Assembly: GCF_000760515.2 (NCBI RefSeq)
Contig: NW_013546143.1
Location: 1 to 64,000, forward strand
Origin: Mitosporidium daphniae
Taxonomy: Eukaryota; Microsporidia
Direction of reading: 5' to 3'
Length of the DNA: 64,000 nucleotides
How positions within the stretch are numbered: the stretch's first letter is position 1; each line of letters begins with the position of its first letter. The notes beneath the pieces are model-generated. The model saw nothing but the letters and a program-made list of their open reading frames with translations. It ran no database searches and had not been told where the DNA came from. The position numbers and the translations under genes are program-made. Of this stretch, positions 4,398-63,248 are shown piece after piece.

Positions 4398-7014
4398 ATG
4401 GGCTCCATGCACGAAAGCAAGCCCACGGCCTTTGTACACCCGTCGCGCCGGAGGGAATATTTTGAAACGGAACTTCAGACCCAGGTGACTCTGAGCCCTA
4501 TTTTCGGCGCAAAGCCATTTATTGGCTGCTCTTCTGACAGCCGCCCCAGGGAGGAAAGATCAGTAGAAGAGGTGTATGGGCCCAATGGCATTCAATTGGA
4601 TGAGCCGATAAAGTTTGTAATCAGCGCATCGGAATCAGATGTGCGAACACCTACTTTGGAGGATAAAGAGCAATCTTCTCCTATTTTGTCTCCGACGAGC
4701 ACCCCTGCCCGCACATTGCGAAAAAGATATCAAATGCAGGGAAATGGAAAGGCGGACTCAAGTTGCGACCATCAACAAAAACAAAATGCCTACCAATTTG
4801 AGGATAAAATAGATTGCTCCTCCGAACTAATTGGAAGCTCTCTAGGTAAGTAAATGTTGAAAATTTGTCGGCCTTTCTTGTCTGAAAATTTGTCGGCCTT
4901 TCTTGTCTGAAAATTTTTCGGCTTTTCTTGTTTGAAATTGACTAACTGTGGTGGTAGATGAGCGACTACCTGGTGCCAAAAAAAGGATTCTGCAGGCATT
5001 CCAATCATCCATAAAGTCATTTTCCACACAAATCACGGACAGCTTGATACAAACAAAAGGATTGCTGCCGCTGCCGTTGAACAACGAATATTTTGAAGAA
5101 ATTTCGTGTGCACCGATCGACCCATATTCGGTGGTCGAATACGACATGGATTTGGAAGGTATGCTGCGAATCTTGTCTTTAGATGCGGAATGGCTTCGAC
5201 TTTACAACGAGCAACATGCAGACGCAAAGGCGTATACATTTACCGAGAACGACTTTGAGGCTGCCATTGATGCATTTGAAAAAGAGTGGCATTCGCTGGT
5301 AAGTTTTTTTTACAAGCCCTAGATAAATCCGTTAATCCTAAAGGAAGAGTTCAACACCGAAGTGTCAGACGATTCTTGTTGCGATGTCTGTGGATCTCCA
5401 GACGCGTCGAATGCAAACGCGATAATATTTTGTGACCGATGTGACATGGCCGTCCACCAGGAATGCTACGGGGTGCCTAGTATTCCAGAGGGAAGATGGC
5501 TATGCACCAAGTGTGGACTGATTCCAAATTCCATTGTCAACTGCACGCTGTGCCCGCATTATGAAGGTGCCATCAAACCCACTGACGACGGAGGTTGGGC
5601 ACACATAGCTTGTGCACACTATATTGAAGAGACCGGGTTTTCAAACGAAACGTATTTGGAGCCGATCACTGGAATTTCGCAGATTTCCCCGGCAAGGTTG
5701 AAGCTAAAGTGCTTTCTTTGCAAAATCAAACACGGGGCACCGATCCAATGCTCTTCAAAACATTGTAATGTTTCGTTCCACGTAAGATGTGCGCAACTGG
5801 CAAACTTGAGCATGGATTATATGCATAAACGCACATATTGCCCTAGACACACTCCAAACGGCCAAAAAGATAGGACTTTTAATGGGATCGAACTCAACGC
5901 ACAAGGTACAATGCCAACTGAACCGATACAAACGGTTAACCACCAATATTTTGTTCCCAAAGGCTTCAAAGTTGAAGGTGCATCATCAGAAACCCTGCCC
6001 ACTCTGGTTCCAAACATAGCCGAAAAAAATGAACAACCAAACAGTGAGCCTATTAAGATTTCGCAGATGCCACCTGTATCTCCAGAAGTTATTTTTTCCA
6101 GAATTAGAAATGGCGAGCCATGGAAGCACGATTCGAACAAGTTTCCGTGGAAAAAGGTATCAACGGAGTCTTCCCATCAATTTGAGCATTTTTTGAGGTC
6201 CGTAGCAAGATATTGGTCGCTTAAAAGAGACTTCAAGGGGGTGTCCTTGATTCGACGATTGTATCTTGAAAATTCAAGCCCCTCAAGTTCACTGTCCGAA
6301 GATGTTTTGGAAGAAATTACACAAAGGTTGAGGGGCGTCCGATTTCAACTTGAAATGATCAGGAGCCTAGTTGAGCTCAACAAAAGGCTGTTTGAATTGA
6401 AGCTAAAAGATTTGCAGCAAATAGGACGCATTTCAAACTTACTGCGAGTGCCCACTTATCATGAACAGAAAGACGTGTTGCAAAAGTTAAAGTCCATTGA
6501 TAAGCAAAAATATTTTCGAGAACCCGTATCGGTTGAGTATGCGCCAGACTATTTGGATATTATAGAAAATCCGATGGATTTTGCAACGATCGAGTTCAAG
6601 TTAACGACAGGAAAATATCTGCAAAAGGCTCAATTGCTAATACCCTCAACAAGCAAAGATTCTGTGCATCAACAAATTTCATCTGCGGCATGGGAACTAT
6701 TCAAAAAAGATTTTGACCTCATCTGCTTTAATGCAACGACATACAATGGCCCCAAAACAAGATGGTACAAGGCAGCACAAAATCTAAACGCCCTTGGGAC
6801 GCCTCTCATTGAGCAAAGGCAGAAGGCCTCTTTGTGTTTCCTCAAAGAGGCCATAGATTGGATGCAAAGCCCCATTTCAGAGTATTTGCAAGTTTTGTGC
6901 CACCAGTTGTGCCCCTATTCCAAGCTGCCAATAGAAGAGCTTTTTGATGAACAAAAATATGGCAGCTCCTATAAAAAAAGCAATCCCTACTCGCTGATTG
7001 ATGTGGAATACTAG
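4398..7014 (+). CDS. NTO1: NuA3-type PHD-bromodomain protein (Nto1/BRPF family)
   Basis: Exons 4398-4845, 4958-5298 and 5323-7014 give 826 aa. Order of domains: charged N-terminus; PHD finger (CCDVCG...FCDRCDMAVHQECYG...WLCTKC, about residues 278-330); zinc knuckle and extended PHD (CTLCP...GWAHIACAHY...CFLCK...SFHVRCAQ); basic linker; C-terminal bromodomain (EYAPDYLDIIENPMDF...CFNATTYN). This PHD-zinc knuckle-PHD plus bromodomain order is that of Nto1/BRPF scaffolds, which hold MYST acetyltransferases on methylated histone H3. Intron 2 is 24 nt, while intron 1 is 112 nt and contains three 25-nt tandem copies. The stop lies 6 bp before the convergent Mrs6 stop. Confidence 0.9.
4860..4934 (+). 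repeat. three 25-nt tandem repeats inside an intron
   Basis: Units 4860-4884, 4885-4909 and 4910-4934 share the pattern AAAATTTGTCGG then CCTTTCTTGTCTG; units 1 and 2 are identical and unit 3 has a few T substitutions. They fill most of NTO1 intron 1 (4846-4957). Removing them would leave about 37 nt, a normal intron size here. The branch-like GACTAAC lies downstream at about 4940-4946. Confidence 0.9.
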
Positions 7015-7020
7015 CGACGC

Positions 7021-8337
7021 TCAACCGAAAATGTCTTTGTGCGGCCGCCTAAATAGCACACCGCCCAACGTATCCCTATTTAAGTCCTCTATTTTGAGAC
7101 ATTCGCTGACAAAGCACAACATGGTGTTGAAAGGTCCCTTTTGCCAAACATACACCAAAACTAAACATGTAACTTGGAAAAAATCGCCAAACTTGTCTCT
7201 GCAGGTGTGCAGCCCGTCGCTGATCCGAGACACAGAACATTGATCACCGTTCCATGATACAGAGAGGATGCAAAGCAAGCCCCATTGTGCATGCTTGGAA
7301 TGGGCACATTTGCTGTTGACGAGCAGGAAAGAACCAAGGCAGCGCAAGATGCATCCGCACAAATCGGTTCCGCTAAAGCGGACGCGGCCAAAGTGTTGGA
7401 GCGGAGAGTCCAGTGTGATTCTGAATCTTGAAGGACCGAAAATTGACAACTGTCGTTTTCCATTTGAACGAAATTGGATATTGATGCGTTCAAGATGATA
7501 GTAGATCCAAAAACACATGCTTTCCTAAAAACACGCTCAAATGTGTACCACGTACCTTATGAAGACCTGTAAAATTTCAAAATTCGAGTGTTGAGGAAAT
7601 AGCATTGGAGAAGTTGGCGTGCATGCTTTTCCAATCACATCATTTCCATCGTGCTCCTCGTCATCAATGTCAGAACAGGAGGGATGGAAGCGACCAATCG
7701 CCGATTTAAATTTCTGGAGGCGACTTTTAATGGTCTCATCGCTTGCGTTCTCTGCCTCCAAGGCTGAAGCGAAATTGCAATATCCAAAAAGAACCATTTC
7801 ACGAAATAAAGGGTCAAACGTGGAAAGCGTTTCCATAGACAGCGTTTCAACTTGATCCAATATGCGCATGAAGGATCTTTTTTTGAGCAGCGAAAAGGAG
7901 CGGTCCGAAAACACATCTTCTTTCGAAAGTGGAAGCTACAATCAACCCCAATGCCAACGAACCTTATAATGGCGGCCCTCAAACAAATAATAAAGCGGCT
8001 TGACCTCGATCATCGACAAATAATCGGAAGAAATTTTCAGCTCAATGCAGGAATCGACAACAGGGTGCCTTGTTCCCAGCGGACATGCGCCAAAATCAAT
8101 CAAAATGCTCTGAGCCTGCGGGGAGCACCACGACTTCTCGATTTGGATAGTTGAAATATCACAATCAGATGAATGGATTTCTTGCAGAGACCGGGCACAA
8201 TCCACGCTCCCGCCAAAAAAGGGGCTTTTCTCGACCATTAGAACCTTTTTGCCAGCCGCAGCTTGCACGGCAGCATTGATGCACGTTGACAAGCTTGTAG
8301 AATCAAAGAGCACATCAATGGATTCCCTTGTGTTCAT
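7021..8337 (-). CDS. MRS6: Rab escort protein (REP/Mrs6)
   Basis: Exons (sense order) 8337-7963, 7935-7556, 7524-7167 and 7137-7021 give 409 aa, with introns of 27, 31 and 29 nt. Residues 1-60 form a degenerate GDI/REP dinucleotide-binding start (KVLMVEKSPFFGGS). LPLSKEDVFSDRSFSLLKKRSFMR matches the REP block before helix D. FIRKACVFGS and LVLSCSST correspond to conserved C-terminal REP segments. REPs present newly made Rab GTPases to geranylgeranyltransferase and to membranes; the family also includes GDI, but the gene matches REP better. The last intron and C-terminus are the weakest part of the model. Divergent from COA6 with a 36-bp gap. Confidence 0.8.
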
Positions 8338-8373
8338 TGCAGTTAAAATTTTCTTAAATTTTAATTTTATTTT
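8338..8373. promoter_or_regulatory. 36-bp AT-rich divergent promoter, MRS6/COA6
   Basis: The whole interval between the two start codons. It contains TTAAAATTTTCTTAAATTTT followed by AATTTTATTTT up to the COA6 ATG. The AAATTT/TTAAATTTTAA core recurs at most start codons in this window, so it is the best candidate for the core promoter element. Confidence 0.5.
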
Positions 8374-8664
8374 ATGACCCCAGAAAAGGACTTGGAAACT
8401 TGTCCGGCTGCGTCACGATTGCCACGTAGTCGTGGCAGCTCATATAATAGAGAGGAAAGGGATAAATGCTGGAAATCCAAGGAACGCTACTTTGAATGTC
8501 TTGATAAAAAGGGCGATGCCAATTGTGGGGGTGAATATGAAGAGTTTTCCAAGCGGTGCCCAGAAGTGTGGGTTAATTATTTTGTTTCCAAACGAACATA
8601 CACGATCCGAATGGAGGAGGCCAAAAAACGGCTGGAAGAAGAAATTTCAAAATCTACAAACTGA
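8374..8664 (+). CDS. COA6: cytochrome c oxidase assembly factor 6 (Coa6)
   Basis: An intronless 96-aa protein. The middle reads DKCWKSKERYFECLDK...NC...FSKRCPEVWVNYFVSKR, the twin-cysteine CHCH arrangement (C-x9-C and C-x10-C type) of Coa6, which handles copper delivery to Cox2 in the mitochondrial intermembrane space. The length fits the family. The C-terminal tail is a charged helix. Its presence supports a functional complex IV. Confidence 0.92.
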   Translation: MTPEKDLETCPAASRLPRSRGSSYNREERDKCWKSKERYFECLDKKGDANCGGEYEEFSKRCPEVWVNYFVSKRTYTIRMEEAKKRLEEEISKSTN

Positions 8665-8830
8665 GTGGTAGCAACGTTGGGCTGCATAAATGTGTTACAT
8701 GACTATTCCTGTTTATTATTGGATTTACTGAGGCCCATTAAAAGATACCATAATTCACTGCGCGCGTATCACAGTTAGAAACATGTGTGCGGCAAGTTAT
8801 ATTTGGAAAAGGCTAACGAAAGAGAAAAGG

Positions 8831-10285
8831 CTAATGCACATACTGTTGACGCTTGATCAGCTCACATTCGCCTCCATTTTCAAAGTTGACTCTATATGTG
8901 TACAAGGAGCCCGAATAGGTTGCAACCACAAGCAAGTTACTGGTAGCGTTGGAAGGGTTAGCTCTTACTTGACAATGGCGCATATTACCCTTCGTGTCTT
9001 TTCCGGGATTTTGGCATATGCAAAGTGCCTTTCTGGCTCCAAGGCATCATTGATTGTCGATGGCAAAAGAGAGCCGATCACGCTACGGAGGGGTTAGAAA
9101 AAAGTCAATTGAAACCCGGAAGATGCCGAAAAAGAGCCACATCCACTGCTTGTAAATGGCAACAAGCGGAAAATGTGAATCGTGTCTGATTCCTCAGACG
9201 CCGCCACGAGAAAAGTAGAGTTCTGAGAGAAAGACAAATAGGTAATGGATATGGGAAACGAGCCTCTTCGGAATTGATACCGACAAATCCCGTCTGGAAG
9301 GCTAAATATCCTAATGATTGTGCCCTATGAGAAATGGGGAGGCAAGTCTCGATTACCTTGTCAGAGGCGGTGGCTATCAGATTCCCAGAAGTATTAAACT
9401 TTACATAAACTAATGGAGATTTGTGCGCCTGAACTATTTTTAACGCTGGTTTTGGCTTGCATGCGTCAGAGGTTGTCGCGTTCACGGGCTCCGAAGCAAA
9501 CGCGTCATAAACCAGCAGATCTCCGGGCGAAGATATGTCTGGAATTGCGAAATATGGCTCTTCCGAATTTGGAGATAAGCTGACGATGTGTCTTCCCGTG
9601 GAAACCTGCAACGTGGGCAGCAAGACACCGTCGTCTGTCGGCTCTTTGCCTTCGCCCGACGAAACTGCGGTGAAGGAAAAGGATGACGATGGAATGGTCA
9701 AATAAAATAGCTTTGCCATCGTGGACATGTCGTAAATAAAGACTTGGCCATCACAATTGACCAACAGCCTTTTTCTGTTCATTTGGACGTGAAAGATGGT
9801 CGATGGAAATCGCAGGTCATACATAACAGAACCGTGCTTTGTATTGATCAGAGAGAGCGTTCTGGCGCTGGAAAGGGCGCCTAGCCAAGAAAGCACAGAT
9901 TGCGTACCTTTTGGAATGGAATTAGATGGGCCGCCACCAAGGGGCAGCTCGGTTTCGCTCGAACCCCGGGGCGACGTGAGGCGGAGACGGCCGTCTCCAA
10001 GCCCAACGACGCCGATCATGCTTGTACAAAAGAGCATGGATACGATTCTGGCGCCGCTTTCCCGATTGTCGTCTTGAGGTAAACCATTTGTGCACACATG
10101 CTTACCAAGGTAATCGTAGCACAGGGAAAGCGGATCGCAATTGAAGATTTTAAACCCGTGCGTGGTGCCGACTGCCAAGCATCTGCAGGTAAGCTATGAA
10201 TGACAGCATACGATAGGTCCTGGTTGAATTCGAGCCACAGGATCATCTCATTTGTGAAGGACGAGGAGCAGGAAGAATCACCCAT
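8831..10285 (-). CDS. ATG18: PROPPIN WD-repeat autophagy protein (Atg18/WIPI)
   Basis: Exons (sense order) 10285-10212, 10182-9357, 9324-9116, 9082-8969 and 8939-8831 give 443 aa; introns are 29, 32, 33 and 29 nt. The N-terminal blade reads [23 protein letters not shown], and blade 5 has [19 protein letters not shown] followed by the lipid-binding FRRG motif (Q-FRRG-S). The C-terminus has [21 protein letters not shown] and [13 protein letters not shown], all diagnostic of PROPPINs. The FRRG motif binds PI3P and PI(3,5)P2 on the phagophore and vacuole. The extreme C-terminus could end in either of two ways because a further GT-AG pair overlaps the stop. Confidence 0.92.
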
Positions 10286-10333
10286 CGTAAAAATGATCAA
10301 ATTTTACATTTAAAATTTCAGCTGCTTCGTACA

Positions 10334-10919
10334 ATGTGGCATGCATGTGCAATAAAATTTACTTTTTGCATCGCCATCAGAATGACATCGATACTTTATT
10401 ACATTAGCCTTCCCGTGTACTGGATCTTTGGAATCCTCTACCCAATCTATCAGTCGTACAAAGCCGTCGAGGCCAGAGGCATTGCGGAGACCGCGCTAGG
10501 TACATATTTGTCACTTTTTTCCAGATGAATCGACCCAGGGAATCAGCGCTCAAAAGTCGACGGGTGGCGTTTCCCATTGGGTCAACTTTTGGATAGTCTC
10601 GAACCTGATGCATCTGATCACTGGAATTCTGGAGCATGGAAGCCCGGAAAACATGCCTGCTTTCTACATTATCTTTAAAATGGTTGCATTGGTGTATCTT
10701 CCTCTTGCCGAATCCGATTTGTCCGGAAAGTTTCTCGAATGCTGCGTGACGCCATTCTTTAAACCGCTTGTGCCGGAAATCGATTCTGCCTTCAACGATG
10801 TAATGAATGAACTCACCACAAAATCATCCAAGCTCTTCGACATGGCCAAAACAAAAGCATCTGCAAAAAGAGGGGCGCTTCCAAGGAAGCCATCTCCCCC
10901 CGCTCCATCTTCTAGCTAA
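10334..10919 (+). CDS. YOP1: Yop1/REEP family ER-shaping protein
   Basis: Exons 10334-10499 and 10525-10919 (25-nt intron) give 186 aa. The TB2/DP1/HVA22 domain is seen as ILYPIYQSYKAVEARGI then SHWVNFWIVSNLM...FYIIFKMVALVYL...KFLECCVTPFF. These are paired hydrophobic hairpins that curve tubular ER. The C-terminal tail is basic and Ser/Pro-rich. The ATG at 10381 is an alternative start that would remove the first 15 residues. Head-to-head with ATG18 with a 48-bp spacer. Confidence 0.82.
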
Positions 10920-11117
10920 ATCAATAAAAGTTTGTAGGAATTGACTCTCACAGCGGGCCCAAATTACGTCTCAACCCCTTTGCGTTACAAGCAATTGCCA
11001 ATGATTGCACATCAATGGATGGCTGCTTGGGGTGGCCGCGGGAATTTCCCATCCATCCATCGATTGATGGTGGGTTACCATTTCAGGCTTTGTTGTCCGA
11101 TTGATTTTTCAAATGTT

Positions 11118-12373
11118 CTATTTTTTAATACTGAGCCACTTTTCGTCGTCCCCTTGTCCAAGCTTGACGACACACAATTTTTTAACGAGCTCTTTAAAAA
11201 GCTCTTTGTTGGAAGGGTTGGCCTTCAAAGGCCCCTTTAGTAGCAGAATCAAGTCCTTCACCTTGATTGGGCCATTTTGGAGATGCGGGAGAATATCTGC
11301 ATCCGTAAGTAGCATGGAGTCATGGCCCACTGAAGAGGCGGGCAAGGAGACCCTGGCTTTTTTCAAAGGTCCATTGGTGTTCTAAGGAAAGATCTGCCAC
11401 AGCTACCTACCTTGGCGACGACTTCGGGCACCTCTTTTTTCTCCAATGGCAAGGCCACATTTTCGGTTCGCTCGTCTTCTTCAGATGAATAGGATAGCGA
11501 ATCCTCAGGTAAAACTTCGGATTCATCCTCATCGGATTGATAAAGGTTCGATTTATCCAGGTGGCGAAGTGTCTTTCGCATCTCTCGTCCTGCTATTGTG
11601 AGGGTCTAAGGTAAAAAAGCCCCCAGTACTGATTTAGTTGTCCGATCCTTGATGGCCTCACTACCTTCGTTGGTATCATCTTCATCGTCATCAAAGACAT
11701 CATCGTAGTCCAATCCCTCAATTTCCTTGAATTAGAAAGGAAGGGGATACATACATCGGGAACATGATCTGGGCGCTCCTCTTCATCGATTTCGACGACA
11801 GCCTCTTTTTTCATGACAATCTGTTCCAAACGCGTTGTGGGCTGCAGTTTCCTGGTGTTTTCGGCCTCCTCCTTGAGACCGATGTTTGTGGAAAGCGAAA
11901 GCCGGGGCGAAAATCGGTACCATTTGTTGACCAGTAACACTCTAAACTCGGCGCCCTATTCTTGTCATGGCATGCGGTGCTACCTGATTGACGAATAAAA
12001 CATATTTTTGCTGTTGCCCCCCTTCAAGTCGCGAAGAGTAGGACTTTCCATCGCCATCCTCCAGAACCCAAGGTGCTGCTTCTTCCGCTTTGAGGGCCTT
12101 TTGAGTTGGAGATTCAAAATGGGTGATAATTTGCGAGCGTCTCTTTAATCTTGGATTTGACGAGGCAAGATTTTCTTCGCCATCCATCGGAGGAGACGCC
12201 TCCGAAATGGCGTCTTTGGAGTTTCGATATAAACGTACGGGTGGCACAAATTCGGAAAAGGGAAGAGCACCGCCTCCCTTTTCGGGCATCAGCATGACGT
12301 GGTAGTTTGTTGATTGCAGAAAGGACTTGATTTTGTACTCGCTATACTTTGGGGCCTGGCTATTCGAGGACAT
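11118..12373 (-). CDS. TFG1: TFIIF alpha subunit (RAP74/Tfg1)
   Basis: Exons (sense order) 12373-11984, 11946-11755, 11725-11630, 11605-11411 and 11381-11118 give 378 aa; introns are 37, 29, 24 and 29 nt. The N-terminal dimerisation barrel includes YHVMLM and PWVLEDGDGKSYSSRLEGGQ...YVLFVN then WYRFSPRLSL. An acidic middle follows (GLDYDDVFDDDEDD). The C-terminus (DILPHLQNGPIKVKDLILLLK...LCVVKLG..KWLSIK) is the winged helix that binds the Fcp1/Pol II side. TFIIF escorts Pol II to the promoter. The protein is short for the family because the acidic linker is reduced. Divergent from the PPCDC gene (48-bp spacer). Confidence 0.93.
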
Positions 12374-12421
12374 CAATGAAAATGGAAAATAATTTGGAAG
12401 TAGCGCAATTTTTAAAGACAC

Positions 12422-13123
12422 ATGAACTTGCTCCTTGGTCTTACGGGAAGCGTTGCTGCAATAAAGCTGCCTCTATTGCTTTCCTCGATTGAAGAATCGC
12501 TTCCGGTTTGTTTAAGAAATTTATTTAGAATGCATCGGTAAAGGTAGTCCTCACTTCAACGGCCGAAAAGTTCATAAAGGATGTTGACATCAACGCTCCT
12601 GTTTATAGAGATGAAGATGAGTGGATCGTACGTGCTAAAGGGTCTGCTAACTTTTTAGAGCTGGAAGAGACTGGGCGACCCGGTGTTGCATATCCAGGTA
12701 CTTTGTTTGCCTTACCAGAGCTTAGGGATTGGTGCGATGTGATCCTGATAGCGCCATTAGATGCAAATTCGCTTGAAAAGATCGCACATGGAATGTGCGA
12801 CAATCTCCTGGTAAGTCATGCGCAACACATCTGATGTAGCGATAGACAAACATCATAAGAGCATCGATTCCACATGTGGCCTCATGCCCCAAAATCATGG
12901 TCGCTCCCGCTATGAACACGGCAATGTGGCAACATCCTTGTACCAATGACCAACTGGGGATATTGAAAAGCTGGGGCATGCGGATAATTCCGCCTGCCGA
13001 AAAGCTGCTTGCCTGCGGAGACTTTGGTGGCTTTTTATGTGCTAACGTGGCATAGGAATTGGAGCAATGGCTTCCGCCGCCGACATTGTCCGTATGCTTG
13101 CTACTCTTTGTGAGCAAATTTGA
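12422..13123 (+). CDS. phosphopantothenoylcysteine decarboxylase-like flavoprotein (Cab3/Hal3 family)
   Basis: Exons 12422-12505, 12529-12810, 12846-13026 and 13056-13123 give 204 aa; introns are 23, 35 and 29 nt. The N-terminal flavin fold is LLLGLTGSVAAIKLP. Then follow VILIAPLDANSLEKIAHGMCDNLL, the PAMNTAMW substrate motif with Asn, and LACGDFGIGAM with the catalytic Cys. The usual HI-x-L active-site His before the L-R-x-W segment is not present; the local reading is LPELRDW, or YPELRDW if a further in-frame 21-nt GT-AG stretch (about 12699-12719) is spliced. The enzyme family acts in CoA synthesis; in yeast, Cab3 supplies Cys/Asn and Hal3 supplies His. Stop is 10 bp from the convergent EFM4 stop. 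Confidence 0.88.
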
Positions 13124-13133
13124 AATTATATGT

Positions 13134-13881
13134 TTATATCTTTTCATAAATAAGGGCGGTCGTACTTTGTCCCGTTGAGCCACCATAGGAGAATGACGGG
13201 CCAGTTTGGATGTTTTCTAACAGCCTCCATTCTATAAATTAGCCATGGGAGCAATATAGCATACCGGCACCAAACCACCGATCTAGCTCCTCAATGGTCC
13301 AATTGCAGGAGACAATTATAAATATCGTAGTTGCCGGCAGTGCCAGCTGGCGCAAACTTGCCCTGTATTGATGGACGAGGTCGTCAAGGGGCCTCTGCGC
13401 ACAGGCGCCGAGCGTGATTGCATCAAAGGTCCCTTTGTCGAAGATTAGCGAATATGTAGAGTCGCACGAAAACGTGAGGAAATCAGCAACTTTCCATGAA
13501 AAGCTGCCGCCCAATAGTGCAGCGGCATTTTTGGAGGCAAGCTCAATGGCCTCATCAACATAGTCCATGCCGGTATATGAACAAAAGGCGTGTTTACGGA
13601 AAAGTGCTTGCAACAACTGTCCGTTTCCTGTACCGATCTCGAACACGGAGTGTTCGCACGGCCGGGACTCCAAATGGCCGTGTTTTATTGCATGCCAATG
13701 ACAGCTTCTTTCGACGATGGAATGCTGGACGGAACCGCCAAACCACACCTCCCCAGCATCGCCAAAGTCGTTCCAGTTATTCAGATCTTGGTGATAATAG
13801 GTCTTCCAGCTACAAATTAATTTCCATTGCCTACTATTGATGCGTGCCCAGGGCACTACTGCATTCAGAGTGGTGGTCCAT
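13134..13881 (-). CDS. EFM4: eEF1A lysine methyltransferase (Efm4/METTL10)
   Basis: Exons (sense order) 13881-13835, 13809-13265 and 13231-13134 give 229 aa; introns are 25 and 33 nt. The start is fixed by the conserved SALGTHQYWKTYY opening. Motif I is FEIGTGNGQLL. Then come GMDYVDEAIELA, FDKGTFDAITLG and the post-motif SCNWTIEEL. The C-terminal YGGSTGQSTTALIYEK matches the family end. The enzyme methylates a lysine of elongation factor 1A. The ATG lies only 17 bp from the oppositely oriented NCS2 ATG. Confidence 0.93.
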
Positions 13882-15585: not shown

Positions 15586-15596
15586 TTTATTGAAAA

Positions 15597-52217: not shown

Positions 52218-52255
52218 TCATTTTAGACTAAAAAATAAAATTTATTGAACTCGCG

Positions 52256-52941: not shown

Positions 52942-53013
52942 TTTAAAAAAGAAAATGAAAGTGAAAATGAAAAACAAAACCAAAGTGAAAATAAAAGTTT
53001 AAATTATTGTTTG

Positions 53014-54083: not shown

Positions 54084-54093
54084 ATTTAAAGCA

Positions 54094-55816
54094 CTAATAC
54101 TGAGGGAAATGTCTGCAAAAGGCAGATATCTTATCCTCTGGCAGCGACAGCAAGAGCGTCTCGAGGCTCGATCCAGAGCTACAGTTAAACAGGAGTAAAG
54201 CAAACCTTGCCAATGTGGCTTTAGATCGCTCTAACAGCCAATATAGCAGCATACGAATGGGGCGGCCACTCATTCCCTTTGAAAGAACGCCATCTTCAGA
54301 AGACACTTGCATTGTTCCTGCAATGTCCAGATGGGCCCAGACCTGCCCATCGTCAACAAATTCTTTCAGAAATGCAGCGGCCGTACAGGCTCCGCCACCG
54401 CGCAAGCTAGAGGCGTTCTTGATGTCAGCAACGGAAGAGTCCATTAGTGGGCGATAGTCGTCCCACAAAGGCATTCGCCATATGCGATCACCAGAGGAAT
54501 ATCCGGCCTCCTCCATCTCTTTGAACAAATTGTCGCAGGTGGAAAAGATGGCTGAAGTGGCCGATCCAAGAGCAACGCCAATGGCGCCTGTCAACGTAGC
54601 AGCGTCAATAATAACGGATGGCGAATATTTTTTGATGAACACCAGCGCGTCGGCCAAAATTAGCCTACCCTCCGCATCGGTATTGTCAATCTTTGGTAAG
54701 CAAATGTGTATATCATCATACCTCGATGGTCTTCCCATTGCTGGCAGTGATGACGTCTCCAGGCTTGGTGGCTGTGCCGGAAGGCAGATTTTCAGTCAAT
54801 GGAATCACAGCAACAAGATTAATAGGCAGCTTACAGAAGGCAGCCGTAATGAACGAGGTCGCCATAATTGCAGCCCCCTGCATGTCTGCTTTCATGTTGG
54901 CCATGTTGGCGGCCGGCTTGAGAGAAATACCTCCAGCATCAAAGGTTACTCCCTTTCCCACTAACCCGATGGGAGATTCATCTGCAGATGAAAGGCCATT
55001 TGCATCTCGGCCTTGGTACTCCATTATTAAGAACTTGCAGGGTTCTGCTGATCCCTGGGATACAGAGAGAAAGGAATTCATTCCCTGCTCCTTGGCCCAT
55101 GATGCATCTTTGGCTTCTATTTTTACATGCGAAGAAATGTGCGACAGATGCTCTTGTGCAAATTTTTGTATCACTTCCACAAATTTCGAGGGCGTGCAAA
55201 TATTTGCCGGCGTGTCGGCCAAGTATCGTGTAACGTTCTGAGCAGACGCCATAATGAAGCCACGTTTAAACGATTGGATATCATTGGCAGTGCACACAGG
55301 AGCCATTTTAAACGACAGAGATTTGCAGTTCTCGGAAAACTTGAGGTAAGAATAAGACGAAAGGATGGCGCCTTCGACTGCAGCTTGAGAATCCGAAAAG
55401 GTATCAAGAATGTACTCCTTGACGCCCTGGCTTGAAAGCAATCTTACTCCATTTGCCGCCGCCTTACGAACAGATTCTCTTTTCTCGTAAAGAGAACGGG
55501 GGGTTGAAGAGTTTCCAAGGGAAATTGCCGCAAGTTGGAATGGAAGCGACGAGTCAATATTGTAGAGGATCCGACGTTCATCTTTCTTTCCTTCAGCATT
55601 GGTTTTTTCAAGCAGGGTTTTGATCGAGCCCTTGGCTTCGGTGGATAGAGTCGTTGATGAAACGGAAATATCAGGCGTCCCTGCAGATGGTCCCGACGTG
55701 GGCTTATCGCAAAAATATCCGGTAATAAACCCTTGGTGAAGAGGAATTGGTGACGATGACATCGAAAAAAAGAGGCGATTCCGATTTGAAACCTTCTGCA
55801 AAATGGCTCGATGCAT
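54094..55816 (-). CDS. leucyl aminopeptidase (M17 family)
   Basis: Exons (sense order) 55816-54722 and 54690-54094 (31-nt intron) give 563 aa. Metal and catalytic motifs: VGKGVTFDAGGISLKPAANM, MKADMQGAA and, across the intron, TIEIDNTDAEGRL. C-terminal DAATLTGAIGVALGS, RMPLWDDY, WAHLDIAGT. The N-terminus (MHRAILQKVSNRNRLFF) is basic and could target mitochondria. FDAGG and ADMQG replace the usual FDSGG and ADMGG, so two small-residue positions are altered. It is a hexameric dimetal exopeptidase. Confidence 0.95.
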
Positions 55817-55922
55817 TCTCTATTTATACTTATGTGGTGTTGATTGATGCAATTTAGTTTGCGCTAAATTGATTAAAGGCGGGATGATTTTCAATTTATA
55901 AAGTTGATTTTTTTATTTCAAA

Positions 55923-56195
55923 ATGAATTCTGTCAATCCAAAGCCGTTTTTAAACAGTTTGGCTGGACACATGGTTCTTGTGAAGACGAAATGGGGCCAC
56001 TCGTACAAGGGGACCCTGATCTCCATCGATTCATACATGAACCTACAGCTCCAAAATACGCACGAACAGGTGCCCGGTGCTGATGTTGCAACCGAGCCAG
56101 AAAGCTCCACAATGCTCGGAGACGTTATGATCAGGTATTTCTTTTTTCATGTTGACATTAGATGCAACAATGTCCTGTATGTTAAATCTGCTTAA
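55923..56195 (+). CDS. SMX3: Sm protein F
   Basis: Exons 55923-56134 and 56162-56195 (27-nt intron) give 81 aa. [20 protein letters not shown] then [19 protein letters not shown] (Sm1), and [17 protein letters not shown] (Sm2), specific for SmF. A loop insertion ([14 protein letters not shown]) lengthens the segment between Sm1 and Sm2. It is part of the heptameric ring on spliceosomal snRNAs. Confidence 0.96.
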
Positions 56196-56294
56196 GCGGC
56201 CGTTCATCGGCTACCTGATGTCGCTCCCCTATGTTCTGGATTAGTTATTAAATTTCATGTAAATTTTAAATGGCGATTTTTTATACTGCACAAT

Positions 56295-57117
56295 ATGAAT
56301 GAAAGCCGCAATGACCTGATTCAATGGATCAATGATTTGTTGTCATTGAACGTTACCAAAATAGAGCAACTGGGCACCGGGGCGGTCTATTGCCAGATCA
56401 TGGATTCCATATATGGTACCGTTCTTTTTTCTCACCAAAGGGGATGTTCCCTTGCACAAGGTGAAATTCGACGCCAATCAAGAGTTTATGTACATTCAAA
56501 ACTTTAAAATTCTTCAGCTCTCCTTCACCAAGCATAACATCTTGAATGTGTGTCCCTTATTCATTTTTACTGGCTAGGCAATACCTGTGGAAAGGCTGAT
56601 CAAGATGCGATTTCAGGACAATTTGGTAATTCGCAGCAGGCTTACGGTGATTAGGAATTTTGCCAATGGATAAAAAAATATTGGGATTCATATTTCCAAA
56701 ACCAAAGCTACGATCCTGTTGCTAGAAGGAGCTCATGCTCCAACGCCCCGATTTTCCATATTTCGGACAGGCCTGTGGCGTCAAATCGAAATTCTGGCGG
56801 CGAGCACAGAGCCTTTCGGAGTACGCGATATTTTGTATAATTGAGTAGCTACTGTTGCACCCAAGTCTGTTGCTCTTAATCCCTGCTCAGTCAATAATGC
56901 CGGGAAAATGAGCGACCTAGCACAGCAGGTTGCCGACCTGACACAGTTGACGGCCGAGTTAAAGCTTAATTCGGAAAATATGGAGCGAGAAAGAGATTTT
57001 TATTTCAACAAGCTCCGTGAAATTGAAATTTTACTTCAGCGGGAATCAACCGAAAGCGACATATCAAAAGAAAAGCTAACCGGCCTCGTTATGTCCATTC
57101 TTTATAGTACCGAATAA
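56295..57117 (+). CDS. BIM1: EB1/Bim1 microtubule plus-end protein
   Basis: Exons 56295-56415, 56441-56547, 56578-56625, 56655-56820 and 56849-57117 give 236 aa; introns are 25, 30, 29 and 28 nt. The calponin-homology domain is LIQWINDLLSLNVTKIEQLG, TGAVYCQIMDSIYGDVPLHK, KFDANQEFMYIQNFKILQLS and FCQWIKKYWDSYF. A Ser-rich linker follows, then the EB coiled-coil dimerisation domain (RERDFYFNKLREIEILLQ), ending without the EEY/F tail. It tracks growing microtubule ends. Confidence 0.96.
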
Positions 57118-57196
57118 AATGCAATTCAGCTTTCAACTTTGAAATTGCATTTTACGGCAGTTTCTGGATTTTTCTTTGAATTTGTTATCTCCGTAA

Positions 57197-57585
57197 ATGA
57201 ACTTGGCCAATTCTGTACGTCCATGTTATATGTATTGACTTTCAGTTGATTGGTAAACGCATTCTGCCCCTTCTGGACCGTGTTGTGATTCGCAAGCCCA
57301 AGGCCCTGGAAAAGACAGCGTCTGGCATCTTAATCCCTGAAAAGAGCCAAGAATCCATTAGCCACGGCGAGGTTGTTGCTGTTGGACCTGGAGACAAGGT
57401 TGCTTTTGCGCTCGTCTAACTTTGGTAGGATTACAAAATGGTCCTAGTTCCTGGCGATAAAGTGGTCCTTCCAACATACGGCGGCACTCAAGTTAAGCTC
57501 GGTGATGAGGTACCACTTTGCTTCTGACCTTTAGATGGTATTTATTTTCCGTGAAAGCGAAATCCCTGGAAAGCTCATCGAATAA
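57197..57585 (+). CDS. HSP10: mitochondrial chaperonin Hsp10
   Basis: Exons 57197-57214, 57246-57398, 57429-57509 and 57535-57585 give 100 aa; introns are 31, 30 and 25 nt. GKRILPLLDRVVIRKPKALE, KTASGILIPEKSQESISHGE (mobile loop), VVAVGPGD, VLVPGDKVVLPTYGG and a C-terminal ESEIPGKLIE. It caps Hsp60. The first exon is only six codons, and the start is fixed by the short N-terminus normal for the family. Confidence 0.97.
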
Positions 57586-58010
57586 ATTGACAATTGTTAC
57601 GATTTTGGCTGTCAATAAATCATATCGTGTACACTGTATTTTAATCCAAATGACCAGCCGATGGTTCGCAAAAAAGAGGCAATTTTTAAGCAACTTGACA
57701 AGTTATCTGATTGCGTACCGCAATGTTGAGCGTAACACAAAACACAACACCAAAGGCAGCGTAAACTTTGGTATTTTTGGATCTTCCTTTGGCCGTTTGA
57801 AGAGCTCTTCTCATGGACGCTGTGTTAAGAAATCCAATGCTTTGCATTCTTCTAGCCTTACCGCTTTTGATGGGAGGTCTGTTTTTCATGCCGAAACCAC
57901 ATGATTGAGCGGAAATTCTTTTGGATGTATTTAAGGTTTATGAGGGAACTATTGCTTCCCTAAATAACAGTGACACGCAAGTGAACAAAATTAAATTTAA
58001 AAACCCATCA
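57586..58010. other. spacer with an unassigned 67-codon frame
   Basis: 425 bp between HSP10 and CUTA. On the minus strand a frame from ATG 57889 to TAA 57686 encodes a basic N-terminus (SMRRALQTAKGRSKNTK) and one hydrophobic helix (VYAAFGVVFCVTLNIAV), as in a small mitochondrial or ER membrane protein. The plus strand is open too (57648-57904). The right end carries the CUTA leader with AAAATTAAATTTAAAAACCC (57987-58006). Confidence 0.35.
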
Positions 58011-58331
58011 ATGGCAATGATTATTTGGTGCACCGTTCCAAATGCACTGAGCGCTATGAAAATATCGAAAAGCCTTGTTGAGTCCAAGCTTGTTGCATGT
58101 GTTAACATCGTTCCGGGCATCAAATCTGTTTATCAATGGGAAAACAAAATACAAGAGTCCGAAGAACAACTTTTATTCATCAAAACGGGGGAAGAACTTT
58201 TCCCCCAAGTCAGGGACAACATACTGAAGTTGCATGAATATGAGGTACCTGAAATCATTGGGGTTCCAATTACTCATGCACATCAGCCATATTTGGACTG
58301 GATATTGTCTTCAACTAAAAAAGTAAATTAG
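58011..58331 (+). CDS. CUTA: CutA-like divalent-cation tolerance protein
   Basis: An intronless gene of 106 aa, the usual CutA length. LVACVNIVPGIKSVYQWENK, EEQLLFIKT, LHEYEVPEIIGVPITHAHQP and YLDWIL are the conserved trimeric CutA fold. I take ATG 58011 because it follows the AAATTT-type leader; an open frame upstream lacks a Met. Role unclear across life (metal tolerance in bacteria). Confidence 0.92.
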   Translation: MAMIIWCTVPNALSAMKISKSLVESKLVACVNIVPGIKSVYQWENKIQESEEQLLFIKTGEELFPQVRDNILKLHEYEVPEIIGVPITHAHQPYLDWILSSTKKVN

Positions 58332-58362
58332 TTGCGAAAATAAAATATAAATTTTTGGTCTC

Positions 58363-59137
58363 ATGCTGGAGTTCTTTGGCGCTCCTGAATATAGTGTGCC
58401 TCCACTCCCGCTAAAAGTGGCAGACGCAGTTGGTGGGAAAATAGCTAATGCTACCAATAATATTACGGAGCCCTTTAACATCCTCACAGGTACCGGTTTG
58501 ATGCCCTGATCCTTTAGGAGCTCTTCCTTCGCCCGTTGGATCTTGTCTGGTTGAACATGGCAATACCAAAGTGATTGCTACGGTCAATGGACCATATCCT
58601 CTGCCCAAATCACAACAAGAAGCATCAAGAGCTGTTTTAAGGGTACGCGTGTTGCCCTCCGCCGTTTGCTTTGAGGCAATGACGCCCGAAGCGATTCAAA
58701 AGACCAAGCTGTGCTCATCCATTTTACAAGACATTTTGAAAGTCTCGTTCGAGTCCGTGATAATGCTAGATAGGCATCCTAGAATGGCGATTGAGCTTGA
58801 TGTACATATATTGGGCGATCATGGTGATGTATTGATGGCTGCCACGGTTGCATGTAGCGCCGCATTATCCCAGTCACAGGTCCAAATGCTCGATTTGCTC
58901 ATCGGCCTCTCGATCTCTAATTCCGCATCAAAGGGTGGCATCAAGTTGGAGGGCTTCCAAAACTCCATAAACGTGACCTATGCCCCCACCCTTTGTAAGT
59001 ATGCCTCCATATATGGGATGGGCGCACTTCAAAAAAATGAATTTCAAAAAATTGATTCTGCAGTCAGAGAACAGGCAAATTTTATTACAAAGCTTTTAAA
59101 AAAGTCGCTCTTATCGTATGCAGATGCTAACAAATGA
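58363..59137 (+). CDS. exosome RNase PH-like subunit (Mtr3/Rrp46 group)
   Basis: Exons 58363-58499 and 58528-59137 (28-nt intron) give 248 aa. SPVGSCLVEHGNTKVIATVNGPYPLP, SILQDILKVSFESVIMLDRHPRMAIELDVHI and AATVACSAALSQS are the RNase PH fold of the exosome ring. Catalytic RNase PH residues look degenerate, as in inactive ring subunits. The N-terminal extension of about 45 residues and the overall layout favour Mtr3, but Rrp46 is possible. It follows CUTA by 31 bp. Confidence 0.82.
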
Positions 59138-59202
59138 ATAAATATTTGGACCAGTAAATGTACAAGTGTAAATCTGGCCGTTCAAAATGGGTGTACTTAA
59201 TT

Positions 59203-62200
59203 TCACTTTGAACAAATCTTGGCTGCTATGCCTTGAATCATGCCGGTGATTTCGCGTTCCTTTTCAAGCAAATTTTGCAACTCGTTTGCCTTTTCCTCAA
59301 AAGTGGCGGCGGTTTTCTCCAATTCCAGCAGCTTTATTTTCTGGTCATCACACTATACATTAGAATTACTTATGCCTACTTCTGCTTGACATATGGACAA
59401 TAACCTCTCTTGATCTTGGTACCCAATTTTCTGAATACCAAGCTCATTTTGGAGATTGGACAATGCATTCTTGCAAAATAGCAGCTATTTGGTCAGATAA
59501 TTATATCACGCGTACCTCTGATTGGTGACTTTCATCCAATGCCTTCAGTTCAACTATGGCTTCCTCTTTCAACAAGACTTTGCGTTCAAGATGTGATATT
59601 TTCACCTTCAAGTCGTCACATTCGGAGGAGATTTGGCCAATTTCAACAGAAAATAAATTTTCGTTGGAAGATTTTTCGCTTAAAAAGGCTTCAAGATGAG
59701 CTTCATGCTGAGACGTTAAAGCACGGTTTTCACAAATGCTTCTTTCAAGCTCCTTTTCTAAATTGGATATAAAGGCGGACTTTTCTTCCAATTTAAGCGT
59801 AAATTCATTAAGAAGATTATTTTTCTCCGCTTCGAATTGATTGATAAGAAATTGCTTTTCAGACACTACCTTTTCCAATTGATTGCCAAGACATTCCTTT
59901 TCAGAGACGATCTTTTCCAGTTCATTGCCAAGACATTCTTTGGCAGAAATAATTTTTTCCAATTCTTCGACAAGATCTCTATTGAGGGATTGTAGCGAAC
60001 AAACTTTTTCCTCTAGCCCTGCCAATTCTACATCAGAAGACCCGATCATGAGTTCTTTTTGTTTAAGCTCGCTTCTTAAATCAGAAATTAGAATCGAATT
60101 TTCTTCCAGAAGATTGGCTGACGCTTCGTTTTGGGCAGATAAATTGCATACCAAACTTTGGTGCTCAATTAGATTTTGTTCCAAAGATACCATATTTACA
60201 GTTTTTTTGTCGAGTTCTGAAGAAAGTTGGTCTATAACGCTCTTGCTATTCCTCAACTGGCCCTTTAGCTGGTCAACAACTTCAATGTAATTGATGCTTT
60301 GAAGTGTATTGTCATCAAGCGAACTCAAATCGATTATCTCGATGTTGTTGAAGATAATTTCTGCAAAGTCAAGCAATTTTGGCTCAAGCATCCCGACATT
60401 GGTTAGCAAAGATTTTGGGCAAAAGTGCTTCAGTACGTGATATTGCTCCAGCAAAAGTAAATTTTCAATTTTCTGGAGGCCAAATTTGAGCGAGGAAAAT
60501 GGCGAATATGCAGCCGGATCTTCAAAAAGCAAGCGGGAATTCTCATCGCTAGACATGGAAAGAAAATACTCTTGTAAAGCTAAATGAAGGGAGCGCAAAA
60601 AGAGATATGAAATAATGAACGAAGAGTAAAAGGAATTGAGGTACTGACAAAATTGGGCCAAAAGTGAACCGTTCAAAGGTCTAGCGGCCAATTCAAGTTG
60701 GGAAGAAATCGATTTAAATTGGAAAAACGCAGTGGAGCACGTTTCGAAGCATATTTTCTTGATAGCATCTGCAATCAATTGAAAAAACGTTTCCAAACAA
60801 GCGGGCTCGATCGAAATGCAAGAAATTGCGGAGAACAACACCTTGAAAGCCTTAGAAAACATACTATCCTCAGCTTGGCAATAAAGAGAAAATGGAGAAT
60901 TCATCCTCAAAAAGCAGCGCTCTTCCAACAAATCACGTCCAAAAGAGAATGGAGTCAAAGGCAGATTATCACGTATGATTTCAACGACCGAATGGAATAC
61001 TGCGGGAAAAATCAACACCACAAATTGACCCTTTGTACTAACAATGCAGTCAAAAAACTCACGAAAGAAGGCCTGATTGCGAAAAATGTGCGAACACTTT
61101 TTTTTGAATTGCAGCAAAAAGGTCTTTTCCTTCATCCTAGTGATGATGGGAGTGATTTGTTGCTCTGGAAACACCACTGACGTTAAACAGACCATTAGCA
61201 TGGAAATGATATAAAAATTGTTATCTTCTGACGCTTCGGTGGCAATTAGCTCATCCAGCAATCGATTCATCAACGGGGATAACTTTTGCAAAATTTCGAA
61301 AAAGACCGGGGAATCTTTTGATGAAAATAACGGCAAAAACGATTTGAAGAAGCTTCGGATATTCTTTTGAATGGCATATTTTTCGGATAATTGATCTTGC
61401 ATTGCAAGCGAATTGAAAAATAAGCAAGTAGAAACCAGCAACAGCTGTTCATATTGACTACTATCTTGGACATCCTTCTCCTACATGATCAAAAATTTAA
61501 GCGAATACCAAAAACAGGGTCGAGTTGGAAAATATGTTGGCTAGAATAACAAGTGCACCGCTATGGGTAGCCAAATCAAAATGCCCCAAAAGCTTCGCAG
61601 TGCACTTTACAAACTTTTCTTTCGACAAGGGGAAAAAACTTTCGGCAAAAAAGCGTTCCTTTTTGTGGGTGATAAAGTACTTTAGCACCGCCAATAAAGA
61701 TCTATAAGATGTTGTTGGCGATTCCGGCATATCTTGTGTTGACAAAGTGTAGCAACTTATGACAAACGGAAGTGACAATGTCAATAATTCCGAAGCGGCT
61801 GACAAAGATTTTGTCTCGATATGGCTATTTTCCAGCGTTACTGAGATAAACTCGAGCGAAAGAAAATAAGACGCAGAATTAGAAACATTTCTTTCAGATA
61901 AAAACGAAATAATGCCGGGACACTCTTGCAATAAGATCGGGAAAGGCTCTATTGAGGCTAAACATATAATGAAGCTAAAATCAACCTAATTTTACCAAAA
62001 CCGATAGAAAGGCCAAATGCTCTTCAGAATTGCAGTTTAATTTGGCATGGCAAGCCACTTTCTCTAAAAGCTTAACAAGATGTTCGGCATTAGATATTCC
62101 CATGCTAGTGATGGGCAACCAAAGCGTCTGGGAAGACCAGACGCAAGAAAGATTTTCGAGTAAATTCTAGTCGAATAAACAGGCAAAACGCGTACCTGTA

Positions 62201-62456
62201 ACAGTGGATTCAAATACTTCAAAGGCTCGAGCAATGAGAAATACCTAAAGTCCGAAAAGAGAGACAAAATTTGAAGCTCAATGTTTGCACTCTGCTTGAT
62301 TTCCTTGGACATGTTGTGAATGTTAATAATCGAGTGGACATACATCGGATTCTCGTGATAGACGTCCATGAACCTCTTCTTCGATGCGTTTGGAGGTATA
62401 AGTGAGATGCAATGAGACAGCTTCAGTAGAAATTGCAATATACCATTTTCCAACAT
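59203..62456 (-). CDS. large helical protein with C-terminal coiled coil
   Basis: Exons (sense order) 62456-62196, 62166-61986, 61957-61509, 61480-59516, 59484-59380 and 59352-59203 give 1036 aa; introns are 29, 28, 28, 31 and 27 nt. About 700 N-terminal residues are Leu-rich helices without catalytic motifs. The last about 330 residues are a heptad coiled coil with internal near-repeats (ELEKIVSEKECLGNQLEKVV). The start follows TTTTTAATTTTA. A helical head plus coiled coil is the layout of p115/Uso1-type tethers, but I see no diagnostic head motif, so this is architecture only. Confidence 0.8.
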
Positions 62457-62546
62457 TAAAATTAAAAATTGGAGCCACATTGGAATGGGTGAAAATTTTA
62501 TTGGATGCAGAGTTAGCGTTTCCAAAGCACGACTAGATTGCAAATT

Positions 62547-63248
62547 TTATTCTGCCATTGTGATTGTTAGTGTTGCCGTAACGGTGGCAGTATATTTATC
62601 GCAATTTGAAGATGTAGGTGTAATTATTTGGTTATCCGTGTTCAATGTCGAAATCCTGTTCATATCGTTTCGGCCAATAGATTTTGTTGGCTTCGCCAAT
62701 ATGGAGCCTATCGACTCCAACGTTAAAGAGGCCGGAAATCTTTCGGCGGATCGAGCATGGGAGCAAAATGAGTCTTCCCCAATCAGACACATTGCTTGCA
62801 TGAATTTGCCTGGTGGACTATAGCAAACCGATCCTTCAGGACATTCGATCAGTCGAATGAATTTATAGCCGCTGCACTCGACAACATGCTTGAAGGCACC
62901 GTTAGTGGGAGGCAGACAAAATAAACCGCCAACCTAAAATTACACGACACGCATTACCCTTTCTTTGCAAAACAAGTCAAAATCAATCGGGGTCTCGCAA
63001 AAATAACAACTGGGAACTTTTCCAATCGAAGAGCAGCTTCTTCCATTTGGGCACGGCTTTAGCGTATTATCGGGGCAGCTGATTATATTTTCAGCATGGC
63101 TTGGATGGCAGTAATATCCCTCCGTCCTTTGAAGACAAAATTCTGGATCGATTTCATTCTTCGGATATGTCGATCTGAGCACAGCGGATTTACTTGCAAG
63201 TGATCCCGAAACTGACAAAGCAATCACAAAAAGAGTATAAAATAGCAT
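62547..63248 (-). CDS. secreted Cys-rich protein with two chitin-binding-like modules
   Basis: Exons (sense order) 63248-62958 and 62933-62547 (24-nt intron) give 225 aa. Signal peptide MLFYTLFVIALSVSGSLA. Module 1: FCLQRTEGYYCHPSHAENII then SCPDNTLKPCPNGRSC. Module 2: FCKERVGGLFCLPPTNGAFK, HVVECSGYKFIRLIECPEGS and VC. Each follows FC-x5-G-x-(Y/F)C-x-P...C...CP-x-G-x-x-C, similar to CBM19-type chitin-binding repeats of fungi. A Ser/Thr-rich C-terminus ends TATVTATLTI, a style common in fungal wall proteins. Likely a spore-wall or host-interface protein. Confidence 0.72.

What the first reader, a model, noticed from the sequence alone, without database searches (positions are those of the whole stretch)
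4846..62957. Genome-wide ultrashort introns of 23-37 nt with degenerate donors
About 80 introns placed by protein conservation cluster at 23-37 nt. Donors vary widely (GTAAG, GTATG, GTACC, GTTTT, GTGCC, GTCTG); acceptors are usually TAG or CAG. CTAAC/CTAAT-type branch sites often lie within about 20 nt of the acceptor, leaving almost no room for usual U1/U2 spacing. Clear examples: 23 nt at 12506-12528, 27567-27589, 28027-28049 and 41357-41379; 24 nt at 5299-5322 and 45417-45440. Few nuclear genomes are known with such small introns.
Basis: partly seen in the sequence, partly recalled or inferred. Interest (0 to 1): 0.8.

Follow-up and report, generated by a model that had tools for sequence, protein, structure and literature searches.

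The report
Tiny introns in Mitosporidium daphniae
A parasite of water fleas at the base of the microsporidia appears to carry thousands of very small introns, mostly 23 to 33 letters long, with loosely defined ends and an ordinary set of splicing RNAs; such genomes are rare but already known as a kind.

Summary
The window is Mitosporidium daphniae (GlnRS 100%). A self-trained gene finder with a flat length prior (15-200 nt) put 200 of 315 introns at 20-40 nt. Without splice-site models, GT..AG gave 139 calls of 20-40 nt, against a mean of 57 for 103 decoy pairs and 1-4 on simulated intronless sequence. Of 23 junctions in six conserved genes, 18 are clean, 3 lie beside small gaps and 2 are uncovered. 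Acceptors are TAG in 293 of 341; donors are GTA in 243 of 341 and weak beyond that; a faint branch adenosine sits at -7 to -10. All five major snRNAs are present, U1 and U2 with canonical pairing sequences. These are U2-type introns of the tiny, dense, loosely marked class (Paramecium, nucleomorph), unlike the few strict introns of Encephalitozoon. No transcript was examined, and the original genome paper could not be read. Kind known; member useful.

The parts
44680..45852 (+).
   Evidence: spliced protein identical at 337 of 337 aligned residues to NCBI M. daphniae CDK P0121, whose only difference is the sixth intron
26845..28155 (+).
   Evidence: all 7 junctions ungapped against TATDN1 (8efg); the last lies in a weak second alignment piece (11 bits)
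33435..33999 (-). UBC7/UBE2G2-type gene; introns 33689-33717 (29), 33919-33944 (26)
   Evidence: 2 of 2 junctions ungapped against E2 G2 (3fsh)
   Evidence: 2 of 3 junctions clean, 1 three residues from a one-residue gap, against 1qzu
15597..17036 (-). mitochondrial processing peptidase beta-type gene; introns 15954-15990 (37), 16774-16799 (26), 17010-17033 (24)
   Evidence: 1 junction clean, 1 with a one-residue gap, 1 outside the alignment to 9h8t; Pfam M16 domains span the first two
47018..47919 (+). KTI12-type gene; introns 47184-47209 (26), 47371-47397 (27), 47653-47679 (27)
54094..55816 (-). leucyl aminopeptidase (M17) gene; introns 54691-54721 (31) and 54179-54205 (27)
   Evidence: Pfam Peptidase_M17 runs across the 31-nt junction, profile 1-309/310; the 27-nt call is model only
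4407..7014 (+).
   Evidence: gene model; the flat-length model called 5299-5343 instead
   Evidence: gene model only
50095..52217 (+). F-BAR/C1/SH3-type gene with 11 introns: 50119-50148, 50360-50385, 50562-50590, 50675-50709, 50830-50852, 51081-51105, 51295-51325, 51423-51457, 51581-51608, 51893-51919, 52143-52167 (23-35 nt)
   Evidence: spliced protein matches a Mycena protein over 99% of its length, E 5.5e-34, 24% identity
22888..24453 (-). WD-repeat gene; introns 23132-23156 (25), 23983-24008 (26)
   Evidence: WD-type profiles on both sides of, or across, the junctions
58363..59137 (+).
   Evidence: Pfam RNase_PH starts at the junction
59203..63289 (-). long gene with 9 introns: 59353-59379, 59485-59515, 61481-61508, 61958-61985, 62167-62195, 62352-62373, 62533-62582 (50), 62934-62957, 63212-63252 (41)
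   Evidence: gene model only
31723..33380 (+). gene with introns 31805-31841, 32043-32070, 32652-32673, 32834-32856, 33117-33141, 33294-33316 (22-37 nt)
   Evidence: gene model only
11118..12373 (-). gene with introns 11382-11410, 11606-11629, 11726-11754, 11956-11983 (24-29 nt)
   Evidence: gene model only
8797..10285 (-). gene with introns 8813-8843, 8940-8968, 9083-9115, 9325-9356, 9881-9907, 10183-10211 (27-33 nt)
   Evidence: gene model only
1..64000. whole window: 124 called introns, 117 of 20-40 nt, 114 of 23-37 nt, on both strands; the full list by gene is; the call 43187-43220 is held to be false
   Evidence: false-call estimate 15-19 of 20-40 nt per simulated intronless copy of the 264 kb

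Best explanation
These are true U2-type spliceosomal introns of Mitosporidium daphniae, an early-branching microsporidian, shrunk mostly to 20-40 nt (median 28). Shown here: the GT..AG segments, their length peak, a weak branch adenosine at -7 to -10, a strong TAG end, exon-side AG before the donor, and an ordinary set of major-spliceosome snRNAs. Inferred mechanism: U1 pairs across the exon-intron junction, so a weak intron side can be offset by the exon side. U2 pairs loosely with a yTnAy site about 15-20 nt from the donor in introns of 23-28 nt, and the TAG just downstream is used. The intron is recognised as one short unit. Deletion has driven lengths to a floor near 22-23 nt. The sites have stayed loose because introns are still many, whereas intron-poor relatives such as Encephalitozoon show strict sites.
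For: Length peak with a flat prior: 200 of 315 calls at 20-40 nt. GT..AG 139 against a decoy mean of 56.5, and 1-4 in simulations. Final set 341 of 20-40 nt in 264 kb against 15-19 in simulated intronless sequence and 6 in reversed sequence. Junctions in six genes: 18 of 23 clean, 3 beside small gaps, 2 outside. The public CDK model comes from another assembly (its contig is 729,536 bases; the window's contig is 78,437) and removes the same five segments. YTNAY adenosine at -7..-10: 56 observed, 18.4 expected in the 140 introns called without site models. TAG 116 of 140, exon -1 G 0.59 and -2 A 0.51 in that set. U1 5' end ACUUACCUG and U2 GUAGUA intact; U6, U5, U4 found; U1C-, U1-70K- and LUC7-family matches.
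Against: No RNA evidence was available. The final site statistics come from a model that scores those sites, so they are partly circular (the 140-intron set is not). Introns whose length is a multiple of 3 and that hold no stop are nearly invisible to the method; one such was missed in the CDK gene. The six genes for the junction check were chosen for having relatives, not at random. The exon/intron donor trade-off is modest: -1G against +4A, odds ratio 0.33, p 0.0088, among 12 combinations tried in the unscored set; none with +5G reached p 0.1.
Confidence: 0.94

Rival explanations
1. The segments are assembly errors or coding insertions that relatives lack, not introns.
For: Single N bases show that the draft is imperfect.
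Against: Indel errors would not share GT..TAG ends, a branch signal and a 23-33 nt peak. The public CDK model, from another assembly, removes the same five segments.
Confidence: 0.02
2. The segments are removed in another way: DNA elimination as for ciliate IESs, or ribosomal bypassing.
For: Ciliate eliminated sequences are similarly short (recalled).
Against: GT..AG ends stand out against 103 other pairs, whereas IESs are TA-bounded (recalled); exon-side AG and a yTnAy site match U1 and U2 pairing; all five snRNAs are present.
Confidence: 0.01
3. The introns are real but are spliced by a reduced or remodelled spliceosome, for instance without U2AF65, with the TAG chosen by distance from the branch site alone.
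For: Only 3-6 nt lie between a branch A at -7..-10 and the TAG, so there is no room for a long pyrimidine tract. No clear U2AF65: the best TIGR01642 piece scores 55 bits against a cut-off of 310 and belongs to a CstF64-like protein; another is RBM39-like (both names by eye). CLK kinases are reported absent in M. daphniae (PMC12795684, passage).
Against: The search is exon by exon, so a split gene scores low; SF1-HH and U12 searches had no positive control; matches over the cut-off exist for U1C, U1-70K, LUC7 and a BBP-type KH domain, though the U1C zinc-finger family also rang over its cut-off in the E. coli control.
Confidence: 0.25

Closest known systems
Paramecium tetraurelia, Bigelowiella natans nucleomorph and dicyemid introns (the short-intron, intron-dense class of Irimia and Roy 2008, PMC2483917; section 15 read, other passages seen)
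   Same: very short, numerous; donors little more than GT(A) in Paramecium and the nucleomorph
   Different: a weak branch-site signal is detectable here; that paper reports none for those three; independent lineage
Encephalitozoon cuniculi introns (PMC3629993 and PMC2483917, passages)
   Same: microsporidian, short (22-76 nt), GT-AG
   Different: 37 introns with strict donor and branch motifs and 6.2 bits donor information, against hundreds in 264 kb and about 1.0-1.2 bits at +3..+6 here (the definitions may differ)
Stentor and mikrocytid introns (PMC9505925, section 4 part 1 of 3; PMC10245619, passages)
   Same: tiny introns; Stentor keeps all five snRNAs and canonical U1/U2 pairing sequences
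   Different: those are 15-17 nt in a very narrow range; here mostly 20-40 nt

Membership tests
U2-type spliceosomal introns | GT..AG boundaries beyond chance | tested here: met
   139 calls of 20-40 nt, decoy mean 56.5, maximum 90 over 103 pairs
U2-type spliceosomal introns | branch adenosine near the 3' end | tested here: met
   YTNAY A at -7..-10: 56 observed, 18.4 expected (n = 140); weak, 155 of 341 have one at -6..-12
U2-type spliceosomal introns | U1, U2, U4, U5, U6 snRNAs in the genome | tested here: met
   one match each, all above the gathering score
U2-type spliceosomal introns | removal from RNA | not testable with these tools
   no reads available; the public CDK gene model agrees
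U12-type introns | U12 snRNA | tested here: inconclusive
   none found, but the search had no positive control
Short, dense, loosely marked intron class (Paramecium type) | introns mostly below 40 nt | tested here: met
   344 of 377 at most 40 nt
Short, dense, loosely marked intron class (Paramecium type) | high intron density | tested here: met
   1.72 introns per kb CDS
Short, dense, loosely marked intron class (Paramecium type) | donor little more than GT(A) | tested here: met
   GTA 243 of 341; +3..+6 information about 1.2 bits, about 1.0 without site models
Short, dense, loosely marked intron class (Paramecium type) | no branch-point signature | tested here: not met
   weak but clear peak at -8
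Encephalitozoon-type introns | few introns with strict donor and branch motifs | tested here: not met
   377 introns in 264 kb; commonest NCTRAY hexamer 9 occurrences in 341 introns
Heterotrich or mikrocytid 15-17 nt introns | single fixed length | tested here: not met
   341 of 377 spread over 20-40 nt, median 28

The most novel reading that the evidence does not exclude
Within one phylum, Mitosporidium and Encephalitozoon form a natural experiment. Introns shrank to the 23-33 nt range before most were lost, so the few strict introns of later microsporidia are survivors of an already tiny set whose splice sites tightened only after the loss. The tiny introns would be spliced with weak U1 and U2 pairing and little or no U2AF65-type tract reading.
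Probability: 0.4. Interest if true: 0.62.

Novelty: new member of a known kind. Interest (0 to 1): 0.46.

Why it matters
Microsporidia are usually described as nearly intronless. A 263-species reconstruction gives 15 microsporidia a mean of 0.01 introns/kb and their ancestor 0.22, against 2.53 in Rozella (PMC8476143, passages). Its main text never names daphniae, and a mean of 0.01 over 15 species could hardly include one at about 1.7 per kb. Placing M. daphniae on that tree would put the great loss after its branch (inference). It also gives a within-phylum test of the idea that intron number, not intron shortness, decides how strict splice sites are. In practice, gene finders with ordinary minimum intron lengths would break these genes.

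Tried and rejected
First gene-finder settings were unusable: too low a gene cost gave 1413 genes and 66 introns in 264 kb; too high a cost bridged neighbouring genes and gave a flat tail of long introns. The long calls (93 above 45 nt in the run without site models) have near-random ends, TAG 34 of 93, so most are probably bridging errors.

The call 43187-43220 was rejected: the gene model there reads through the tRNA-Ser gene 43096-43177. It was left in the counts.

The idea of selection for stop codons inside introns (as proposed for Paramecium, recalled) found no support where it is testable: 55 of 115 and 58 of 117 introns of length 3n+1 and 3n+2 hold an in-frame stop, against 54.9 and 60.3 expected. 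For length 3n it is 80 of 103 against 70.4, but detection favours stops in that class (335 of the 341 introns, from genes with a start codon and whole codons).

U2AF65 was sought and not settled. SF1-HH was not found and is not informative. The 11-intron F-BAR/SH3 gene returned no M. daphniae protein, only a Mycena relative. A plasmid search with the tRNA gave nothing. A motif search by expectation-maximisation gave only a vague branch motif.

Papers not held: the M. daphniae genome paper and Whelan et al. 2019 on microsporidian introns. I therefore cannot say whether the intron sizes are already in print. Searches: of which 7, 58 and 84 listed only part of their hits (40 of 93, 15 of 151, 10 of 994). 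In the papers opened I saw passages only, plus an outline and sections; none of what I saw gives M. daphniae intron sizes. One passage says that its caleosin gene is intronless (PMC6309107).
Full report
Identity. The glutaminyl-tRNA synthetase frame 36226-38541 is 100% identical to the NCBI protein of Mitosporidium daphniae, and a CDK gene matches at every aligned residue. The genome held is 4.66 Mb in 147 contigs; the window is the first 64 kb of contig 125, which has 78,437 bases. NCBI taxonomy places Mitosporidium in Microsporidia incertae sedis.

Checking the observation. The six quoted segments are GT..AG with the stated lengths. To test the claim without assuming it, I wrote a two-strand gene finder with a codon-pair model trained on the data themselves and a flat prior on intron length. 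It used 264 kb: the window, 190 kb of two other contigs and 10 kb of a third. With GT and AG required but no other site model, 258 introns were called, 140 of them 20-40 nt. Five simulated intronless genomes gave 2, 1, 3, 2 and 4 of that length. In a rerun, GT..AG gave 139, while 103 other dinucleotide pairs averaged 56.5 with a maximum of 90. After donor and acceptor models were learned, still with a flat length prior of 15-200 nt, 200 of 315 calls were 20-40 nt, most at 23-33 nt, over a low flat tail.

A final model with the learned lengths and sites called 377 introns, 341 of 20-40 nt and 325 of 23-37 nt; the median of the 341 is 28. In the window the figures are 124, 117 and 114. Four simulated intronless genomes gave 15-19 false calls of 20-40 nt, about 5%; reversed sequence gave 6. 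A second pass on the sequence with called introns removed gave 0, a weak control because those calls had already been taken. All six examples are in the final set. The earlier flat-length model had only three of them, and had one more with the same donor and another acceptor. One window call, 43187-43220, is held to be false because it depends on reading a tRNA gene as coding.

Protein evidence. I checked 23 junctions in six genes chosen for having known relatives. CDK: 5 of 5 agree with the NCBI gene model, which comes from another assembly (contig of 729,536 bases) and also removes a sixth 27-nt GT..TAG segment without in-frame stop that my method could not see. UBC7: 2 of 2 ungapped against E2 G2. 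TatD: 7 of 7 ungapped against TATDN1, one in a weak second piece, including introns of 33 and 58 nt. PPC decarboxylase: 2 clean, 1 near a one-residue gap. MPP-beta: 1 clean, 1 with a one-residue gap, 1 outside. KTI12: 1 clean, 1 beside a gap, 1 outside. In sum 18 clean (no gap within three residues), 3 beside small gaps, 2 not covered. The 11-intron F-BAR/SH3 gene is supported along its whole length only by a 24% identical Mycena protein. Most of the other window introns rest on the gene model alone.

Anatomy. In the 341 introns, acceptors are TAG 293, CAG 28, AAG 17, GAG 3; donors are GTA 243, GTT 64, GTG 29, GTC 5. In the 140 introns called without site models the picture is the same: TAG 116, GTA 92, exon -1 G 0.59, exon -2 A 0.51, +5 G 0.44. 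Information at +3..+6 sums to 1.16 bits in the final set and 0.97 bits in the unscored set. Donors match CAG|GTAAGT at 5.2 of 9 positions on average (5.0 in the unscored set), against 3.7 for background GT sites. The branch site is faint: YTNAY with its A at -7 to -10 occurs 123 times against 46 expected in the final set, and 56 against 18.4 in the unscored set, with a peak at -8; no NCTRAY hexamer exceeds 9 occurrences. Density is 1.72 introns per kb of coding sequence. Scaling 377 per 264 kb to the whole genome gives roughly 6,000 introns; density varied from 0.7 to 1.9 per kb of sequence among the four contigs sampled, so this is rough.

Machinery. U2 (137 bits), U1 (84), U6 (91), U5 (90) and U4 (97) each have one match over the curated threshold. 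The U1 5' end reads ACUUACCUG and the U2 branch-pairing stretch reads GUAGUA, both canonical. U6 carries ACAGAGA and U5 the GCCUUUUAC loop (sequence; motifs recalled). Over their cut-offs are two zf-U1 matches, one of which looks like U1C by eye (68 bits; the E. coli control also rang for this family), one U1-70K N-terminal match (35 bits), three LUC7 pieces on one contig and a partial BBP-type KH domain (46 bits). U12 was not found, without a positive control. U2AF65 was not identified, and the test cannot show absence. A paper reports that M. daphniae has no CLK splicing kinase (PMC12795684, passage). Nothing tested suggests lost core snRNAs.

Mechanism. Shown: segment ends, lengths, branch peak, snRNAs. 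Inferred: U1 pairs across the junction, and a weak intron side can be offset by exon G at -1. Support for the offset is modest: in the unscored set the odds ratio for -1G with +4A is 0.33, p 0.0088, among 12 combinations, and none with +5G or +6T reached p 0.1. U2 pairs loosely at a site some 15-20 nt from the donor in introns of 23-28 nt, and the next TAG is used. In this view the donor and branch are so close that the intron is recognised as one unit. Stentor, with 15-16 nt introns and the same canonical U1 and U2 sequences, suggests that a major spliceosome can do this (PMC9505925, section 4 part 1 of 3 read).

Comparison with what is known. Irimia and Roy described two opposed classes: intron-poor genomes with strict sites, and short-intron, intron-dense genomes (Paramecium, B. 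natans nucleomorph, dicyemids) with very weak sites (PMC2483917, section 15 read). They place E. cuniculi in the strict class with 6.2 bits of donor information; E. cuniculi introns are 22-76 nt with strict motifs (PMC3629993, passages). M. daphniae falls in the opposite class although it belongs to the same phylum, except that a weak branch signal remains. A 2023 comparison still describes microsporidian introns as few, short and similar to one another (PMC10245619, passages), and a 2021 reconstruction gives 15 microsporidia a mean of 0.01 introns/kb (PMC8476143, passages).

Novelty. The public CDK model already contains these introns, and the genome paper was not available to me, so the tiny introns may well be in print. 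The kind is known. The contribution here is a measured description and the contrast within Microsporidia. No transcript was examined.

Noticed in passing
window 4846-4957: A 112-nt intron in the PHD-finger gene holds about three copies of a 25-nt tandem repeat (sequence), as if it had grown by tandem duplication.
   Followed up: partly
window 45737-45763: A 27-nt GT..TAG intron without in-frame stop that would be read through as nine residues; the public gene model removes it, which may mean that transcript evidence was used there.
   Followed up: partly
window 43096-43177: tRNA-Ser (GCT) gene directly at the 5' side of a minus-strand gene; my gene finder read it as coding.
   Followed up: yes
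window 24906-26783: Gene resembling mitochondrial EF-Tu (named by eye) with a called 128-nt intron 26291-26418, and an MPP-beta-type gene at 15597-17036: nuclear genes suggesting a mitochondrion that still imports and translates.
   Followed up: no
proteins P0002 and P0003: Unnamed relatives 83% and 77% identical in GlnRS exist in public data; their DNA would allow a direct comparison of intron lengths and sites.
   Followed up: no
264 kb sampled: Intron phase is skewed: 161 phase 0, 94 phase 1, 80 phase 2 of 335.
   Followed up: no
L036 878-2508 (-): RS-rich protein with RRM and UHM-like domains, RBM39/Rsd1-like by eye, itself interrupted by called introns of 26-60 nt.
   Followed up: partly
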